Origin: Cladochytrium replicatum | Lineage: Eukaryota > Chytridiomycota > Chytridiomycetes > Cladochytriales > Cladochytriaceae | DNA length: 64,000 bases | Assembly: GCA_025526935.1 (NCBI GenBank) | Contig: JAHLKD010000131.1 | Span: 50,226-114,225 of the forward strand | Direction: 5' to 3' | Shown here: positions 1,591 through 16,483 of the stretch, piece by piece | Layout of the letters: each line of letters begins with the position of its first letter | Position numbering within the stretch: the first letter of the stretch is position 1 | Notes under the pieces: generated by a model | Database searches by the model: none | What the model saw: the letters and a program-made list of their open reading frames with translations, nothing else | What the model was told of the DNA's origin: nothing | Translations under genes and position numbers: made by a program

Positions 1591-3131
1591 AAATACATCA
1601 CAACACTAATACAATGATGTGCAATAATGTCTTTACAATCTGAACAACTATTTGCTTTTATTACATGCAAGAAAGACTAGGCCCACCTGTGATGCGAGTG
1701 TTCTTATTATGACAAAATGTCAAGGCATCCCAGAGTGAACCGCTCTATTTCAAATGGTAGGTGTCATTGAGCATCATTTCGATAAAAATAGGTATCTTTT
1801 CTCCCGGGTTGGTGCCGTGGATGTGAAATCCGTACACAAACATCGTTGATATCAGCTTGATTTGGCGAGAGCTGGCCAGATCAAACCAAAATCGCATAGC
1901 AGATTGGATCGTAATGGACGTATTAGATGGGCTATCAAGAATATAATACATTCCAGGCTGTAGAAATGTGATGCAAAACTGTTTTATTATGCTACAGAAA
2001 GGTTCTCAATAATTAGGGCTATGAAATTGGTGCGTATTCAATGATGCAGGTTGTTTACGATATTAGGGAGCTCGCCCACTTCACTAGGGACAGTGCCGTA
2101 CTTTGCATTTTTAACATACCGCCAGCTTAATCTTTTTCTTGTGGATGGTTGTGTAATGGTGTGCGGGCTACTTGAAGTATAGAAGCATAGTTCTCAGTGG
2201 AGCGGGGCTGCGTTGCTTTTGCTGGCTTTCCATTGGCGGACTTGTTATGCCTTTTTCCATTAGTTGGGATGCGTGACATATCTAGTTGGCACGGGTGGTA
2301 TATCGGATTGTTTCTTGGCGTTGGAGGGAACAGAGGTTGTAGCTGTTTCTGGAACGTTACGGTCCATATTGATTCAGGTCTGTGTGATTGGTACGGGCTT
2401 CTCTGTGTCGCTAATATGCTTCTTCATCCTCTTTGTGTTCTTTTTAGACTCCTTGCTCGACTTCTCGTGCCGGGTAGACAGCGGCCTCCAGTGACAATGC
2501 TTTGGCGAACAGAAGAGGCGGCTTTGGTGGGAGCAGAAAGCTCGTCCGTGATATCCTTCCTTCTGATGTCAATGGTCACTTGCTGTTTCACAGTGGCTGT
2601 ATTGGCTACACTTTCTGATCTGCACTTTGGTCTGATTCGATAGGTGAAGAGGTTTCGAGAGGTTCTTCACGCTGTCCAATGGGACCTGTTTCAACGATTG
2701 TGGGAACAGATCTGATCCGAAACGTCAGCAAAGGTTTTCGAAAGAAAAGCTGGGTTAATTTGCTGCATAGTAGGGTTGTGGTAATCCAGAACTCAGAATC
2801 ACTCAACTGCAGCACCAGAACTACAGGAATGGCGTTTCGAGGGGTAACGATCGTCGCATAAATGTCCTTGTTTGAGAATGATTTCAAGCAATAGATTCGC
2901 TGTGGAGCTAGCTACCCGTGCTAATGTCGGCGGGTGGTCGTGCATTTAACATGTGGAACATCAAGGCACAGAACGAGCTGATTTTCATTAACTCTTCTTA
3001 AGTTGCTGAGCTCAAACTGGCCACAACGAAGTTAATCACGAAATGTGGGTCAAAAGGAATTGAATTGTAACGCTAAATATACAAAAATTTGAATGGTCAA
3101 AGACTGTACGGCGGGTTGGAAAGCTTAGACA

Positions 3132-3212
3132 GGTTAAGTTCAGATAACCACCATAACGACGGACCACTCGATAAGCAACGGGAAGGAGGTCCATTTAAAG
3201 TATCCGGGTGGG
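3132..3212 (+). repeat. Dispersed short repeat, copy 2
   Basis: Second copy of the element at 1517-1590, with the same ordered phrases (AGATAACCACC, CGGACCACTCGA, CCATTTAAA) and then a CCGGG-like end. It lies about 300 bp from the 3' end of the protease gene. Confidence 0.55.
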
Positions 3213-3517: not shown

Positions 3518-6500
3518 CTAGTTCACAGTGAGAAGGGGAAGGTCAATCAGCTTAGGAGAAACTGGAGCAGTGTCCTCGTTGAACGCCTTGGCCCAAGTGA
3601 GCTGAAGAGACACAACGTAGCTGCCGGGGGTCAAAGTCTTGCGGGCCTGGGTCGCCTTATCGGTGTATGTAAGGTTCCAGTTCAGCGTGTACTCGAAGAA
3701 AGTGCCGGTGGCGTCGTTCGAGTTGCGGCTCAATTCGACCTCGCTGAGCGCAGTGCCGATCACTTCGCGGGTCTTCCCGTCGAGGAGAAGACCCTCGAAC
3801 TTGGCGGCGGGAACGATGAGACGGAACTTGGCGGCGAGGTTTGACAAGCTTGCGAGAGTTCCCTGGACAGGTGCCTCGGTGTCTTTACCATCCACAACCC
3901 AAACTGCGGAGAGAATAAAGATCAGTCATTTAAAACTGGAGAAATCGATTGGTGGTAACTTACGAGGGGATTCGTCGGTCCAGTCAATGTTGCGGCGGTC
4001 GCCAACCAATCCTGCGAAGGAAACGGTGTTGGTCACCCCGTTCGCTCCAACGCGGAGCCATCCGGACACGAGGATGATAGACTTGTCTTGGAGGGTATTC
4101 TCGACAACGCTGGAGCTGGGGGTGAAGTTGACCTTGACGGTGGCAGATGCACCAGGTGCAAGCTCAACCTCAGCAGTGGCGCTGGCGGCACTCCCGCCGA
4201 CGGAGAAGGTAACAGGGAAGTCAGCATCAGAGTATCCAGGCTTGTTCGAGTTAGAAACATCGACAATGAGCGCAGCCTCGCTAGAAAGTGACACTTTCTG
4301 AGCGACGCTGTCGTAGTTCTTGATGGTGATCTCGTGGCTCTGGGCGCTCTGGAAGGAACCGAGCGCGATCTTTCCGGGACTGGCAACGACGCGAGTGCCG
4401 AGGAGCTGGGGGACCTGGATCAGACCGCTTCCTTGCAGGAGGGCGGTGTCGAGGAACTCGCTGGTGCTGAAAGTTAGTAGCTTGCCGGCGTTCTGGAGAC
4501 GAGTTCGTACGAACAACGGGTCGGTGCTGAAGAGCTCCTTGAGAAGAGAGGGGGAGTCCGCACGACGAGCCAAACGGCCGTACGCGGGGGTGGGTCGGGG
4601 AATGCACTTGACGGGGGAGACCGTGGCTGAAGTTCCGGGAGTGGTGGTGATATCATCACCGCCAATGGTGGAGTAACCGCCACCAGCCGTCACGGTGCTG
4701 GTAATGACGGTTGAGGTGGGGGGTTGGTTAGCTCCAACGATCTTGGCGTAGTGTAGGTAAAGCGCGAGAATACCAGCAGTCTTTAAGAAGATACTATAAT
4801 CAGCTTGCGGCATACCGCAAAATGACAATCCAGACTTACATAAGGGGTTGCCATTGACGTTCCGGAGAGAAGACCGAAGCCACCTTTTGCAAGGGGAAGA
4901 GTAGACAGAATGTTAGTGCCAGGGGCCGCGACATCGGGTTTGAAGCTGAGGTCGGGACCAGGACCCCACGAGGTGAAGGTTGCGACGTTGACAGGCGACA
5001 CGACCGACTTCGAGTCTTTACCATCGAAGGCAATCTTGGATGTTCCGCTGGTCTTGAGGAGAAGAGTTGCCAAAGCAGAACCGGCCTCCGCTTCCATGGT
5101 GTACACGGGAATAGTGATTCCAGTTGAAGGGTCGGCAGCAAAGTTTTGGAGGGCGGGGAGAGCGCTCAAACCGTCTGAATGGAGAATTAGCAAATTGAAT
5201 CAATTACACTGGGCTGATGACTCACGGTTGTAGATGATGAGAGCAACTGCACCAGCCGCCTGTGCGTTCAGAATCTTCTCGTTGAAAGCGCAAGTGCCAC
5301 GGCGGATGACGAGAACCTTGCCCGTAGGGTTAGTGGCAACACCAACTGCGTTTGCAGTTCCAGTGCATCCGTCGGCGTTGCTCGCGGTGCCAGCAGCTGG
5401 AGCAGCCAAAGCGTTCAAAACGACATCTCCATCGAATGCAGCGTTGACGGGGGTATCGTCGTAGACGGTCAAGTCAAACTTGGTGCCGGCAACGGTGATA
5501 CCACGGGTGCGGACGGTCGCAAAGTTGCTTGTGGCGGCAACAGCGATGGCCCGTTCAGCAATAGCGGGGCTGGAAGATTGCCAAACTCCATCACCTGCAA
5601 TTTATTAAGAATCCTTGTGTAACTTAATCGATGAACAGAACTCACCCTGAGCGTTTCCTTGGGCAATGGCGAAAATAATCTTTCCGGTAGCGATAAGGCT
5701 GTCAATAAGATCGACGTCCAACCCGTGCTTTGAGAATTGTCAGTAAACCAAAAGGGGTGTAAATTCCCACACTTACAGGGAAACCTCCGTCGCCTCCGAG
5801 TGACATGTTGATGATGTCCATTCCATCGTCGAACGCACGCTGGACGGCCTTGATGATGGTAGCGGTGTCGACACCACCCTCACAACCAAAGATACGATAT
5901 GCACCGAGAGTCACATCGGGGGCCACACCCGTGAAAACAAAGGTGGAGGTTGAGTTAGCCGCGACGATACCCGCAACGTGAGTTCCGTGACCATTGCAGT
6001 CCATCGGGTCTGGGTCTTTAGAACAATTCGCTTCAGCTTTCATTAACAGTTACTCATTGCAAGCGCAAAATACCAGGTTTGGGAACTGCGTTGTCGGTGC
6101 TTCCATTATAGTCATCACCGACAAAGTCGAATCCATAAGCAACCTTCGCGGTAGGGAACTTTGTGCCACCGCCAAGGGCAGGGTGTTTCCAGTCCACACC
6201 AGTGTCGATAATTCCGACTTTAATGCCCATTCCAGAAACACCAAACTTCTTGCGTGCCTCGAGCACACCCGTGAGTTTGTGAGCAACGTTCGCGTCTGTG
6301 ACAGAATCGTCGCCGGCAGCGATGGCGGTCGGCCTCTTGGGTCCTGGGATATACTTGTCCTCGTAGACGCGGACAACTCCCGGAGCTTTTTGGAGTGCCT
6401 CGATGTCCGCTTGCGAAGAAACAGGGACCTTAACAAGAAGAATGGTTAGGCGATTGTTGAAACATGATATCGCGATCACATACAATAGCAGCGATGAAGT

Positions 6501-8334: not shown

Positions 8335-11300
8335 ATGGAGCGCACGCTATTCGTAGCTACTCGTGAGAGCGATCCTTTGTGCACGACGCGTCGGTTGGTT
8401 TTTCTGATCTCCGTGATCCTCGCTTTAACGTCGTCGGCATATTCTCTCACGATCGAGCCCAGTCTGAATCTGTACTCGAAGAGCGACAAGTTTCTGGTTG
8501 GAAGAGGTAAGCGAGTGCCAACATCCTTGTGTGTAATATCTCACAATGATTCCTGGGCAGAGGTTGTGTTTGATGCCGGGCTTACGCAGCTGGACAGAAC
8601 TTTGCAAGATGCAACCTACTACTTTCTCTTCCAATTTGGAGAACGGAACATTATCGGAGAGCCTCAATTTGTGATCGTGCCCTCCGCTACTCCTCCACGA
8701 GTGAACTTCACGTACACTACTCCAGGTATCAAGCAAGCCAATCTCACCGTCAGCGACACTCCCTTCACGTACTTTGGAACTCCTACTCCTTTCGGAATCA
8801 CGTCAGAAGGAAAAGCTGCGCCAATGAGAATGACCACATTTGAGGTGCTAAAAGCTGATGGTATGCGTTTTTGGTGATGCTGTTTTTTGGCATATTGATG
8901 ACCAGAAAAATCTTAGCTTGCTTTGATTTCGACCTCTTTGTCGACTGGAATGGTGGAAAGGTTGACACAGGAGATATCATTCCGTACAGCGGTGATTCTG
9001 TTCGATTCTATTTGACTGTTGTAGACAATGCCCACGAAACAAATGTGCTTTCCACTGAGGTTCTTACTCATTCATTCGAGAATCTTGGAGAGAGCCCCAT
9101 TATTGTACTCTCTAACCGGACAAATGAGTACACTATAAATATGGCCATCGGACCGAGGGTAAGTTCCATAATTTGACAGAAATCAGTGCTTAGGTGTCTC
9201 TCTCCAGAATGAACCATCGCACTGGGTTGCCGAAATTGATGGCTCAATATTTGAAAGCGGAGTTCCAACTATTGCCGCTATATATTCTTCTGGAACTTAT
9301 CTAAGCACTTGTGGAATAGCTCAAACAGTGGTGGATGTAAGTGTCCCTTACTTCAATGCCATTCAGCTGGGATATGCTTTGCCGGTGAGAGACTTTTATA
9401 ATGATTTGAATTGTATTTGACCACACAATCTTCAGTCTGTTTACTCTGATAATTCTTTGTACATATCAACTCTACCTGACAGCCTTCAAATTGCAGAAGA
9501 TCACTGCTTTAGGAAGCAGGGTATGATGCTATTTATTCAGAGCTCAATGAATAAAATTGAAACAGGTGCAATTGCTGCCTTTTCGAGTGATGGATTTGAC
9601 AATCAGATTCTCTTGCAAAACTTGAAACTGGATGCAAGTGGGACTCAATCAGGGCCTTCTTCTGTTTGTAAAGGACTTTCAGTAGAAGAGTGTTCAAAGC
9701 TCAGCATCTTTCAGGCAATCATAGTCAACTTGTCAGTATTCTGTGTGACAAACATGGGCCTTTTTATAAGTAACGTTGCACCACTGTACACACCAAGACG
9801 TCAAGAGGGGACATTAACAAAAGTAAGCTTCCCAAGCTTATCTGGATTTCCTTCATTTGTGTCAGGTGAATCAGACTGTTTTGGAAGCAGCAGTAAGCTC
9901 TATGTTGGATATCAATCAACATCCACACTAAATACAGTTAAAATTGTTGTCTCAAACACAAAACTGATTGTTCAGAATCAATTTGAGTTTATTTTGAATA
10001 TTGAGCCAATATCATTCCTTGGACCTGAGTACTCTGTTGTTTCTGTTGTCTACGACTATGTAAAGGGTACACATCTTGCATTAGTTGGAAAGTCATTGGG
10101 AGCACCATCTAATATTTGCTCTCTGGGGACATCACCATGTGCAGTTATTGGTGCAAAAATTATTGCATTTTCGGCGAAATCAGCTGAAGTATACTTCTCT
10201 TTTTTGCCAGCAGCTGTACTTACCGGACTGAGTTTCCATGCAAACGCTTTTGATCTGTTTGCATATGGAGACTCCCTCTGGCAATCTAGTAATGGTGGAT
10301 CTAGTTTTGTTGAACTCTTCAGTATTGTTCAGCCAACATCCTTCATCAGTGAGGTTTTCATTGTGTTCAAATCTACAAATGAACAAAAGGGATATGGCCT
10401 GCAAACCAATTTAGGAAAGTCCTGTTTTGGAAGAGCGGGAACGTTGGACCTTGTTGTCGTGAATAAGGATGAGGGTAACCAACAGACAAGAGAGTCAATC
10501 TACTTTGATGAATTGGGAGCAATGTATAGAATTGTATTAGACATTTTCAAGGTCAAAGAAAGTGGACAAGCATCTATTCGCCGAATACCAGTTCCTGTTA
10601 CCTCACTCCTGACGGTTGCTGATTTCTCTTTTCCATCAAGCCTCATTCCAATTCCTTTAAGTAATGACAAACTATTACTGAGGACATATCCAGAGAGTGT
10701 CAATCGGTTTTATGCACAATATTTGAGTTACATCATTTCTCAAACATCACAGGGATCCAGCGGAGGTTGTTCAGTTACAGATATTCTTTACAATGGACTT
10801 GTGGCAGAATGTTTAACAGTAGCACCATTTGTTCAAGAAACCAAAGATAACAGCCCTGCTCTAAACTACGGCCTAACAGTTGATGGCGTGGTGACGTACA
10901 GTGTAATTTCAAATCCCCAGAAATTGAATGCCAATATGGAGCCAGTCACATTTACCTTATCTTCTCAAGACACATCTGTAGTAATACAAATTGGGTGGCT
11001 CTTGACGGATATTGGAAAGTCTATCACTGTGAACTTAGGATCCTTTATTGTAACAGGCATTTTAAATTCAACAACTGCAACTGGATTATCAGTGCGAGGA
11101 CCTGTGTCAAAAATAAACAATCTGGCTAGTGGATTGTGGAAAATTTATGACCTTCGAAGTTACAAAGAAGATGCAAAGACATTAAGTCAAACAGTCACAA
11201 TCACAAATTATGGTATAAATCTCTTCAGAGTTACTGTTGATGCTGGATACGTTACGTTTAAATCAGACTGTAAAATAGGGTTTGCTTTGTTCAATCTTGA

Positions 11301-12953
11301 TCACAACTGACTACTCTTGAAGTTTTAGGGATGATATTTGGCAATGATCCATTTGCTGGACAAATTGTGCAGGTTATTGACTCAAACAACATTATTGTTG
11401 CTAAGACTACAGATCTGTTTCCGGTTGGAATATCTGGAGCTGAAAATTGGAAGCTGTTTGGCATAACTGACTTTAATGTTTCCTCTCCCTATCCACAAAT
11501 AGATTCTAGAGTATGTGTGATTTACGCTATATTTTCAAGTGCTAAACAAGAATTGCCAGAATCGACCTTGGCAAATGAAGCTTCAAACATGTCAATGGAA
11601 AAATTTGGACTCAAATGCTAGTGACTCAATTCTTTATCTGCCTTACTACTCCAATGTTTCATTTCAGGCTGAAGTTCAAACAGATCCAACAAACTTGCTT
11701 GCTGCAGCTAATCCCCCACAATTAAAAGTTGTGATCTACAATCCAGCATTGTACAATTACAGCATTTCTGGGGAGCTAGATGTACAAACAGGCGATTCTT
11801 CTGTCAATATTCTATTGAAAGATATTGGAAAGGAGGTACAAATATATAAATATATGAATCCAATAATCATATGATTAAAGCTTAAGATTACTTATCAGGG
11901 AACAAGTATCATAACTTGGAAGCCAAATGTACTGTCAATCTTGTGTCCATCATCTGCAAAACCAATTCGAGTTATCAATGGATGTCCACCATCGCGGTAC
12001 ATGGCTAATACAGAAAGCCCCTTAGGATTGCTGGTCCAAATCATGCCATACCTTATTGGATCAATTGAATTAATTCAGTCGCTACCTGTAAGTATTGACA
12101 AATGTGCAAACCTGCATTTAAAGTATTCTACTCATAGTATAACTATCGACCACCATCTCCTCTTGGCGTTGGAGTGCCAACATCAAGTAACATATATAAT
12201 GCAGCACCAGATCAACCCCGTTTTCGGAATAGATATGCAATATCACAGCAAACTGGACAATACAAACAATGTTTGGGGGCTCAAACACAAAGTCGGTGCA
12301 ATTGTACAGATGAAGACAGAACGTCTACATCAGTTTCAAAGTCAGACTGTATATCTATGGTAAAGCATTTCACTCAGGTTGACAAGACCCTGACCATTGT
12401 TTGAAGGTTAGACGTGTGTTGAGTGAGAAGAAGTTTATGCCTCAGTTCACAATTTACCAAAGCGGATTTGACCCAAGTGCACTGACAAACAGATATTCGC
12501 TCATTGAATTAAACAACAGAACTGATTATTGTCCATCTTGTAAGTCAAATTTGATTCATCACACTAAGCGTCTCACTCTTTTGATAAAGCTGTCGCAAAT
12601 TGCAAAGATCCAGCCCAGATAGCAAAGGCAATTATGAATCCTCTTACAGATACAATTGAGTGGGAGGTGAGAGTTGCAGTATCGCCACAAAGACATAACA
12701 TTCATTTTGATTTAGGGTCCAGAGTTGTACCATTTCCGTGCTCAGGTAATAGAGGGTGAATACTGCCTTCTAACAACTGAGTTTGTTGTAAGTACAAAAT
12801 ATCAGTAGAACATTATTCAATCTAAACATTTTTAAGGTATATGTTGTGGTAAACCCACCTCGAACAACGATAGTAGTTGGGGTCATGTCATTAGCAGCAG
12901 TTGTAATCTTTATCTGGTTCTTTGTTACATATCTAGCATATAGCTTTGCATAA
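8335..12953 (+). CDS. CatSper auxiliary subunit-like membrane protein (beta/gamma/delta/epsilon family)
   Basis: Large single-pass type I membrane protein, over 1,200 residues after splicing. It has an N-terminal signal-anchor (LVFLISVILALTSSAYS), a very long beta-rich ectodomain, and one TM near the C-terminus (TIVVGVMSLAAVVIFIWFFV) before a short tail and stop at 12951. The ectodomain end matches my knowledge of CatSper accessory subunits in order: VINGCPPSRYM, a CLGAQ...CNCTDED cysteine cluster, RYSLIELNNRTDY, EWEGPELYHFRAQVIEGEYC then TTEFVVYVV. About a dozen exons are joined by GT-AG introns, the largest spanning about 9435-11285. The first intron (8507-8560, 54 nt) is in frame and stop-free, so retention would still give a protein. 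Alternative start at 8305. In animals these proteins surround the CatSper Ca2+ channel in the sperm flagellum; here the likely place is the zoospore flagellum. Which subunit it resembles most is undecided. Confidence 0.7.
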
Positions 12954-14322: not shown

Positions 14323-16106
14323 TTAACCGCGTCGGCCCAAAGCCAACTCTTCGACCTCCTCTTCGAGCTGCTTCACCATCCTGTGTTGCTGCTCAAGGTC
14401 CTTATTCAGCCTGTCCCTCTCCGCAATTAACTAGAACAGATTCACGTGAGAACTTGACGATCCACCCCAGTCCGACATACCTGCTGCTCCCACTTTCGGA
14501 ACCTGGCTTCCTCGGACCTGACTTGGTCCGTGAATCGTTTGCGGAGCTGGTCTTCCTCCGCTTTCATGCGCGACTCGAGGGCTTTGCGCGCACGAACGAC
14601 TGGGTCGTCGTCGGAGCGGCCCTCGGATGCGAGCCTCGAGGAGCGGTAGTTCTCGTAGTGAGTGTCCTCAGTAGTGCCGATCAGATCGTTCATGTGGGTA
14701 CTACAGGATATCAGCAAAAATAATACGGAAATCGGTGGAACGTACCGGATAAGGAGGTTACGGAGTTTGACAAAGTCGCAGTGGGCTTCGTTCTCAACTA
14801 TATGAAGGATCTGTTTGATTTTTTGATGGCATAATTTTTGGTTGGCTACCTTCAGCAGCACCCCAGAGGTATTGGCGTCCACGGACCTTCTTTCCGCCGA
14901 CGTCGATGTCGGTGTCGCTTCCGATTACCGAGAAGGGCATAGCACTCTAGAATGGGTATATTCAGCATAAGTGAATCCAAAAATCAATCCGGCTGCCCTC
15001 AACTTACCAGGGTGCTAACGTTTCGTTTGGTGCTCTCTTCGTCGTCCGACAGCGTTGGGGGAGCGAAGACCTGGATACCGTGGTGTGAGATGGCGTCACG
15101 AACACGGTCCTTGAATGCAAGAATGTCGGTGGGTGTGAGAGTGTCCGCCTTTGCGATGATGGGGATGAGGTTGACGCGGGTGCCGAGCTGCTTCATCACT
15201 TCAATGTCCAGCGGACGGAGACTGTAGTAGGGCAAAGGTCAGAAGCAGAGTTCACAAGTATTGTGACGTGGAACCATGCATGACATGGCAATAAAAGAGT
15301 GTTCACACCCAAGAAACGACCACCACGACTGTTTTGTATCGTCTGTAACGTGCAACCATGCATGACAGCATGCTGACCGCATGACAATAAAAGAGTGTTC
15401 ATACCCGCAAAAACCCCAAGAAGCTACCACCACAATGGATCGCCCCGACCGTTTTGTATCGTAAACCACAAAGTATCGCTTCCACTTGCAGTACACACTC
15501 CCCCACCAAATTTGGTTTCCTCCGTCGATGTTCCTCTGTCGCACCAGATACTCACTTGTGACCGGTGGGCTGGATAAAGTACAAGCAGACATGAACGCGC
15601 ATGTCGTCGGGGTTCTTCCTGTTGGGCCTGGACTCGTGCTGCATGTAAGCGAGGTGTTGTTCGTCGATGAACTCGACGATGGGGACCCAGCAGTCCTGGT
15701 TGTTGACGTAGTCGCCAAAGCCTGGGGTGTCGATGATGGCGAGACGGACGTTGAAGCCCTTCTCCTCGATGTCAGCCCGGACAACATCGATCTGGACGGT
15801 GCGTTCGAGCTGCTTCTTGAAGCGGTCCTCCGGCTTTTTGTATTCTCTGAGAAGGGTAGTGAAGAGGGTGTTGATGAAGGTAGTCTTGCCCAGACCGGAT
15901 TCACCTGTAGCGAAACGGAAGGTCAGAAATGGAGCGACACTGTACGTACAGGTGCTTTGTAAAATACCAACAACCATGACGGTAAAGTTAGTGCCCTTCT
16001 TCGAGACCAGCTTGTGACGCTGGTTGGGCAGGTTCGCGATGCCAACCTGAGCAGGGGTGGTGGTAGCGCCAGGCATGTCTTGTCTGGTGCTCAAGCCCAA
16101 GTCCAA
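14323..16106 (-). CDS. Septin, C-terminal coiled-coil type (Cdc12/AspC-like)
   Basis: GTP-binding filament protein that forms rings and scaffolds at the cell cortex and at flagellar or division sites. The start [13 protein letters not shown] at 16106 leads into the septin N-terminus [17 protein letters not shown] (polybasic region). After a ~62-nt intron comes P-loop [15 protein letters not shown], then [13 protein letters not shown] (G3), [24 protein letters not shown] (G4, AKAD) and PFSVIGSD with RQYLWG (septin unique element). The C-terminus is a charged coiled coil ([32 protein letters not shown]) ending ALGRRG. Seven exons; the third-from-last junctions CTG|GTAAGT and GAA|GTAGCC keep frame. 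The ~330-nt intron 2 holds an internal duplication. [10 protein letters not shown] and the long coil favour the Cdc12/AspC group over Cdc3 or Cdc10, but this is a by-eye placement. Confidence 0.93.
15261..15462. repeat. Imperfect direct duplication inside septin intron 2
   Basis: Two units (about 15261-15341 and 15343-15462) share ACCATGCATGACA, CAATAAAAGAGTGTTCA and GTTTTGTATCGT in order. The second unit has extra sequence inserted. They lie wholly within the 330-nt intron, the longest of the gene. Confidence 0.7.
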
Positions 16107-16483
16107 GTTTATGATAACGGTAGTAGTAGTGAGTCAGTCAGTCGGTCTGTCCGTGCCCGCAATGAACCAGTCAGCAACATATTACTATACACGCCACACA
16201 GCTCTTAACACTGCAAATTTGCATCGTCGCCTGCCCCTCCCCAACCTCTAAAAACCATCACCGCCACCCCTCAAAACCAGCACCACCTGCTGCTATCTCG
16301 CTCTCGCACAGATCAGATCCACCCTCTCTCTCGGGTACTGCTACTTTCCACTTCTCTTTCGCTTACTGACCGTCTCTCTCTCCCCGTATTACCTCGTTTC
16401 ACCGCCACTCCGTCTATCGCTCCAATCGCTCCGCGTCTTAAAACTCCCTCTCGACCACAGTCCCTCCCCTCTCTCACGCACAA
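16107..16483. promoter_or_regulatory. Divergent promoter region, septin / 14-3-3
   Basis: 377 bp between two divergent start codons. Strongly pyrimidine-rich on the plus strand near the 14-3-3 ATG (runs of CTCTCTC and CCCCTCC at 16310-16480), typical of leader regions of highly expressed fungal genes. No TATA box was evident. Confidence 0.45.

What the first reader, a model, noticed from the sequence alone, without database searches (positions are those of the whole stretch)
8335..12953. CatSper auxiliary subunit-like gene in a fungal genome
The large type I membrane protein ends with the ordered signature I associate with CatSper beta/gamma/delta/epsilon: GCPP, a Cys cluster, IELNNRTDY, GPELYHFRAQV...YC, then one TM. 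CatSper is known mainly from sperm flagella of animals, and I recall only scattered reports from flagellated fungi. An auxiliary ectodomain subunit here implies a CatSper-type Ca2+ channel complex in zoospores or gametes. The ectodomain N-terminal ~700 residues look divergent and may be new.
Basis: partly seen in the sequence, partly recalled or inferred. Interest (0 to 1): 0.85.

Follow-up and report, generated by a model that had tools for sequence, protein, structure and literature searches.

The report
CatSper beta subunit gene in chytrid
This is the chytrid fungus version of a protein that forms part of the calcium channel of animal sperm tails, and the same fungal genome carries likely genes for all four pore proteins and two other partners, so swimming fungal spores may use an old form of the same channel.

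The parts
8335..12953 (+). CATSPERB (CatSper beta subunit) gene, 14 coding exons, 1319 aa
   Evidence: Spliced; Pfam PF15149 4.7e-43; PDB CATSPERB 2.2e-29; tree
8335..8442 (+). probable signal peptide / N-terminal hydrophobic segment (about aa 1-36)
   Evidence: hydropathy windows above 1.6 starting at aa 15 and 20-22
8491..8760 (+). PKD-like N-terminal domain (aa 53-124, spliced)
   Evidence: Pfam PKD E 0.077, 13.4 bits, below cut-off; aligns with PKD domains of P0096, P0007 and P0099, which are above cut-off
9520..10689 (+). beta-propeller region (about aa 326-700; limits approximate, by analogy with P0095)
   Evidence: Pfam CATSPERB_2nd at aa 543-651, E 0.0012, below cut-off; propeller in the model of relative P0095 at its residues 195-627
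10948..11166 (+). CATSPERB head-domain match (aa 787-859)
   Evidence: Pfam PF22830 E 9.5e-5, 22.5 bits, below cut-off 27
11170..11498 (+). second head-like module (aa 861-950, spliced), in all non-animal rows aligned and one starfish, missing in five other animals
   Evidence: 14 of 19 aligned rows have it; profile-profile probability 88 to the first module
12064..12941 (+). CATSPERB C-terminal domain (aa 1106-1316, spliced)
   Evidence: PF15149, 147.8 bits
12141..12350 (+). conserved core NYRPPS...KQC...CNC...DC (in exon 10), missing from the public gene model
   Evidence: 15 residues within aa 1115-1184 identical in 19 of 19 rows; comparison with P0001
12858..12923 (+). C-terminal transmembrane helix (about aa 1289-1310)
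   Evidence: hydropathy maximum 2.86

Best explanation
The gene is the C. replicatum orthologue of CATSPERB. SHOWN by sequence: membership in the CATSPERB family; a single CATSPERB_C locus in this assembly; a type I layout with a large ectodomain and one C-terminal TM; and sequence candidates in the same genome for the four pore subunits, gamma and epsilon. INFERRED: the products assemble as in animal sperm. Four different 6-TM subunits would form the pore, with filter residues D, D, E and D for CATSPER1-4, while beta, gamma and epsilon form an extracellular canopy that stabilises the complex and its delivery to the flagellar membrane. In zoospores (or gametes) the channel would admit Ca2+ on depolarisation or alkalinisation and so change flagellar beat and steering.
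Against: No expression, location or current data. CATSPERD was not found (no positive control). EFCAB9, CATSPERZ, TMEM249, TMEM262, SLCO6C1 and ARMH2 were not tested. Whole-chain scores of four-domain Cav/Nav channels exceed the CatSper scores for each of the four pore candidates, because the repeats are summed; single stretches were inspected only for C27 (one chain, at most 67 bits) and C83 (two chains, at most 63 bits), not for C65 and C101. The pore models are partial and spliced by hand; the gamma and epsilon genes were searched exon by exon, and the epsilon PDB match covers only 48 residues in its best stretch. The window protein's own head and propeller matches are below Pfam's cut-offs.
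Confidence: 0.85

Rival explanations
1. The gene is a CATSPERB orthologue, but the complex is reduced or altered in this fungus (three ectodomain subunits, no delta, Glu in the CatSper3 filter), so its gating and selectivity differ from animal CatSper.
For: One CATSPERD/E C-terminal locus only, whose PDB match is epsilon; no CATSPERD propeller match; CatSper3 filter TAEGW.
Against: Absence of delta rests on family searches without a positive control; the CATSPERG propeller family also gave no match although a gamma gene is there, so such negatives are weak. PMC5362262 states that delta appears later in evolution (passage), so a canopy without delta may simply be ancestral. Glu is still acidic.
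Confidence: 0.4
2. The gene is a relic: conserved in sequence but not part of a working channel, or used at the cell surface outside the flagellum.
For: PMC13358043 says CatSper components are not universally retained in flagellated fungi (passage); the second gamma-like copy at C56 looks decayed.
Against: The 1319-aa frame is intact, the core residues invariant in 19 rows are kept, and pore, gamma and epsilon candidates are present.
Confidence: 0.08
3. Contamination or recent transfer from an animal.
For: None found.
Against: 13 short introns, a septin and a subtilase in the same window, chytrid nearest relatives, and animals on their own branch with 100/99.
Confidence: 0.01
4. It belongs to another auxiliary subunit family (gamma, delta or epsilon) rather than beta.
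For: The families share a distant fold: 7eeb_F, 7eeb_G and 7eeb_H follow beta; Pfam CATSPERD-E_C matches 5 of 12 scanned beta relatives weakly, below its cut-off.
Against: Only beta families and chains of CatSper match the window protein by sequence; separate gamma and epsilon genes exist in the genome.
Confidence: 0.02

Closest known systems
CATSPERB (mouse, PDB 7eeb_E and 9ubw_E; Pfam PF15149, PF22830, PF21548)
   Different: N-terminal PKD-like domain and a second head-like module; 13 short introns; low identity (32% in aa 1061-1290 and 13-21% in most other segments to the marsupial P0013)
Chytrid CATSPERB proteins in databases (P0002-P0005, P0094-P0096, P0112)
   Same: Same family; 28-32% identity in the best local alignment for the seven compared (P0112 was not)
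   Different: P0002-P0005 and P0094 have no residues at the PKD-like region in their public models; the P0095 model stops before the TM
Fungal flagellar atlas, Kossakowski et al. 2026 (PMC13358043)
   Different: The main text does not hold the words CATSPERB or Cladochytrium; its supplements could not be read here
Early-eukaryote CatSper (Cai, Wang and Clapham 2014; not held, recalled; cited in PMC5362262, passages)
   Same: CatSper complex predates animals; the search set of PMC5362262 included Allomyces macrogynus
   Different: No Cladochytrium gene is described in the passages I saw

Membership tests
CATSPERB | CATSPERB_C domain above the curated cut-off | tested here: met
   147.8 bits against 27, E 4.7e-43
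CATSPERB | Best match to beta rather than gamma, delta or epsilon | tested here: met
   Only beta among CatSper chains at E up to 1; the other two matches were Mediator subunit 28 at E 0.1-0.9
CATSPERB | Head and propeller domains | tested here: inconclusive
   Window protein: head 22.5 and 2nd domain 18.6 bits, both below 27. Of 12 relatives scanned, head passes in 6 (P0002, P0003, P0004, P0007, P0096, P0097) and 2nd in 4 (P0003, P0004, P0007, P0099). Model of relative P0095 matches mouse CATSPERB
CATSPERB | Type I topology with one C-terminal TM | tested here: met
   hydropathy; weaker internal peaks at 368-377 and 509
CATSPERB | Phylogenetic position with other CATSPERB | tested here: met
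   29 rows; no gamma, delta or epsilon outgroup was included
CatSper channel complex | Four distinct pore subunits CATSPER1-4 | tested here: met
   one candidate each by best CatSper chain; Cav stretch control for two of four; no channel tree built
CatSper channel complex | Acidic filter residue (T-x-D-x-W) in each pore subunit | tested here: met
   TFDNW, TFDQW, TAEGW, TQDGW; one is Glu, not Asp
CatSper channel complex | Gamma and epsilon ectodomain subunits | tested here: met
   partial exons only
CatSper channel complex | Delta subunit | tested here: inconclusive
   No PF15020 match; the search had no positive control
CatSper channel complex | EFCAB9, CATSPERZ, TMEM249, TMEM262, SLCO6C1, ARMH2 | not tested
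   no reference sequence or family at hand
CatSper channel complex | Physical assembly and Ca2+ current in the flagellum | not testable with these tools
   needs experiment

The most novel reading that the evidence does not exclude
Zoosporic fungi run an ancestral, simpler CatSper: a full four-subunit pore under a beta-gamma-epsilon canopy without delta, with a PKD-tipped beta subunit. In Blastocladiomycota the CatSper3 filter Asp has been replaced by Ser, giving a three-Asp channel with altered selectivity. CatSper would then be a general opisthokont (or older) flagellar steering channel, not a sperm invention.
Probability: 0.4. Interest if true: 0.6.

Novelty: new member of a known kind. Interest (0 to 1): 0.4.

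Why it matters
[quoted passage not shown] The chytrid Spizellomyces punctatus has been transformed (PMC7213984, abstract start in listings); whether it has CatSper was not tested here. A chytrid genome with candidates for seven core subunits (CATSPER1-4, beta, gamma, epsilon) makes it possible to ask by gene removal in a suitable chytrid whether CatSper steers flagella outside sperm. The corrected gene model also restores the most conserved part of the protein, which is missing in the public record.

Tried and rejected
Second CATSPERB copy: the only other PF15149 match in the genome (C35:173961, E 0.2) lies at a locus whose frames read by eye as a leucine-aminopeptidase-like protein; rejected as chance.

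Ion_trans matches: the 19 matched stretches lie at 15 loci; I translated all 15 (part of the output was cut). Four were kept as CatSper candidates. By eye, L002 and L009 read as HCN/CNG-type, L011, L013, L016 and L022 as K+-channel-like, L014 and L017 as ankyrin/TRP-like; these readings were not tested. L019 was tested and matches KCNT1 (SLO2-type) channels, E 2.7e-28. L018 and L021 were not resolved. The first look passed on only 25 candidates, so further channels could be missed.

First structure model (public model P0001, mean pLDDT 55.7) was too poor; its top hit was still CATSPERB, but I do not lean on it. The VIA list tests mainly model residues 195-627; nothing is concluded from families missing there. 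NCBIfam gave nothing for P0001.

Two gamma-like genes as a beta-gamma-gamma-epsilon canopy: set aside, because the C56 copy looks decayed, although it still gives a CATSPERG_C match of 35.7 bits.

Literature not reached: Cai 2014 and Cai and Clapham 2012 are not held. Searches run. Supplements could not be read.

Tree and alignment choices: searches gave 39 different proteins; one search used 28 of them plus my window model, and left out P0001, P0010, P0011, P0012, P0014, P0015, P0018, P0107, P0109, P0110 and P0113 (the window's own public model, and vertebrates). Searches used 18 of the 39 plus the window model. One search used all 75 hits. One search used the C83 model, whose last junction was wrong (see below).

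Full report
WHAT IS THERE. Window 8335-12953 (+) holds a gene of 14 coding exons separated by 13 introns of 45-59 nt, all GT-AG. The product is 1319 aa with an N-terminal hydrophobic segment, 11 N-glycosylation motifs, 23 Cys and a C-terminal TM; weaker hydropathy peaks at residues 368-377 and 509 are the only others above 1.6. The window lies at C131:50226-114225 of a 50.5-Mb assembly. The best protein hit, P0001, is a hypothetical protein of Cladochytrium replicatum on a contig of 114225 bases, the coordinate at which the window ends. P0019, a C. replicatum protein on a contig of 205822 bases, covers the C101 channel model at 100% identity, and C101 is 205822 bases long. I therefore take the organism to be C. 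replicatum, order Cladochytriales.

THE PUBLIC MODEL LOOKS WRONG IN PLACES. P0001 (1184 aa) agrees with my model over most of its length but drops several stretches and reads exon 10 out of frame, losing NYRPPS...KQC...CNC...DC. Against 10 relatives the best-hit bit score is higher with my model in 10 of 10 cases: for example 433 against 288 for P0095, 417 against 229 for P0096, and 171 against 89 for P0009. In an alignment of 19 rows, 15 residues of that core (aa 1115-1184) are identical in all 19. There is no RNA evidence for either model here.

WHAT IT IS. Pfam CATSPERB_C scores 147.8 bits, E 4.7e-43; the head (22.5 bits) and second domain (18.6 bits) are below their cut-off of 27. PDB sequences: CATSPERB 9ubw_E E 2.2e-29 and 7eeb_E 2.5e-29, and no other CatSper subunit at E up to 1. 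Two database searches gave CATSPERB relatives in fungi, protists and animals: 18 hits at E up to 1e-3 and 28 at E up to 1e-10, 39 different proteins; both scored only the nearly 8,000 candidates sharing most words, so counts are lower bounds. Eleven are fungal: P0001, P0002, P0003, P0004, P0005, P0009, P0094, P0095, P0096, P0097 and P0112; the printed names of P0002 and P0004 are cut before the organism, and I count them as fungal by tree position. P0002 and P0004 already carry a CatSper beta family name. A tree of 29 rows parts the 11 animal rows from the other 18 by a branch of 100/99; the 11 fungal rows plus one unnamed metagenome protein form a set with weaker support, 93/96; the window sits in a set of 8 rows (7 fungal, and that metagenome protein) with 97/97. 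Several long branches are of unsure place, and the metagenome protein that pairs with the window (98/90) is itself one of them.

THE REST OF THE COMPLEX. From 19 Ion_trans matches I found four single-domain channels and spliced them by hand. The best CatSper chains, among the 60 best matches shown of 131-151, are: C83 (L010) CATSPER1, 138.1 bits, filter TFDNW; C65 (L020) CATSPER2, 191.6 bits, TFDQW, with CATSPER3 and CATSPER4 at 70 and 63 bits; C101 (L012) CATSPER3, 166.2 bits, TAEGW; C27 (L015) CATSPER4, 128.0 bits, TQDGW. In all four searches some four-domain Cav/Nav chains rank higher in total because their repeats add up. Where I looked at single stretches they scored at most 67 bits (C27, one chain) and 63 bits (C83, two chains); I did not look for C65 and C101. 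C101 is confirmed by the 75 CatSper3-type hits; the other three models score much lower against that set (best 100-119 bits, against 359 for C101 with its best non-self hit, in which C83 had a wrong last junction). CATSPERE: C1:268836-269532 (-), Pfam CATSPERD-E_C 42.7 bits; PDB epsilon E 2.2e-8, best stretch 48 residues, delta not among the three matches. CATSPERG: C32 (-), Pfam 34.7 and 29.8 bits in two exons, PDB gamma E 2.5e-9, with photosystem chains next at 0.004. A second gamma-like locus on C56 is a duplicate (71-80% nucleotide identity in eight pieces) whose aligned pieces carry many stops, one of them within what is an open C-terminal exon in C32; I built no gene model of it and take it for a decayed copy. 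CATSPERD and CATSPERG propeller families gave no match; as a gamma gene is present despite that, this kind of negative is weak.

MECHANISM. Shown: sequence membership of beta and the presence of sequence candidates for CATSPER1-4, gamma and epsilon. Inferred from the mouse complex, in which four different pore subunits are accompanied by single-TM subunits with large extracellular domains (PMC12638846, passage): the same assembly in the zoospore flagellar membrane, giving Ca2+ entry that tunes the beat. Gating by voltage and alkalinisation is carried over from animal CatSper by general knowledge. Ca2+ influx is required for gamete chemotaxis in the fungus Allomyces, and it is unknown whether the mechanism is comparable to that of animals (PMC4685582, passage).

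KNOWN OR NEW. PMC13358043 (passages only) lists CatSper subunits among orthogroups specific to flagellated fungi, not universally retained, with 4 of 107 non-minimal groups carrying Ion_trans. Many fungal proteins are named CatSper3 in databases. So this is a new member of a known kind. In the five literature search listings and the passages I opened I saw no paper describing a fungal CATSPERB or the Cladochytrium complex; most subscription papers, and all supplements, were not searched.

SIDE RESULT. In the 75 CatSper3-type proteins the filter residue is D in 62, S in 7, E in 5 and V in 1. All seven with S are Blastocladiomycota: two Paraphysoderma, two Blastocladiella, Catenaria, Allomyces and Sorochytrium (three species looked up; Blastocladiella and Allomyces by recall). 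These seven are all the hits whose shown names I recognise as Blastocladiomycota; 'CatSper3' is their best relation to the query, not separately tested for each.

Noticed in passing
P0023, P0024, P0025, P0029, P0033, P0035, P0049 (CatSper3-type proteins): The filter Asp of CatSper3 is Ser in all seven Blastocladiomycota sequences found; the other named fungi keep Asp except C. replicatum, which has Glu.
   Followed up: partly
L030 (C56:116500-125500) against L031 (C32:116000-125500): A segmental duplication with the gamma gene; the C56 copy carries many stops in its aligned pieces and looks decayed.
   Followed up: partly
window 12138-12359 and P0001: The public protein model reads exon 10 in another frame and lacks the family's invariant core.
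   Followed up: yes
window 11170-11498 (aa 861-950): A second head-like module, present in the non-animal CATSPERB rows aligned and in a starfish, missing in five other animals.
   Followed up: partly
L019 (C4:778500-785500), 1713-3155 (-): A SLO2/KCNT1-like K+ channel exon in the same genome (E 2.7e-28); SLO-type channels partner CatSper in animal sperm (recalled).
   Followed up: partly
window 4783-6049 (-): Subtilisin-like protease exons (Pfam Peptidase_S8) with a PA domain between them.
   Followed up: partly
window 15552-16133 (-): Septin gene exon, 150 bits to Pfam Septin.
   Followed up: partly
P0065, P0069, P0083, P0067, P0102: CatSper3-type proteins in Paratrimastix, Aduncisulcus and Chara and a CATSPERB in 'Eukaryota sp. 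TZLM3-RCL' point to an origin far older than animals and fungi.
   Followed up: no
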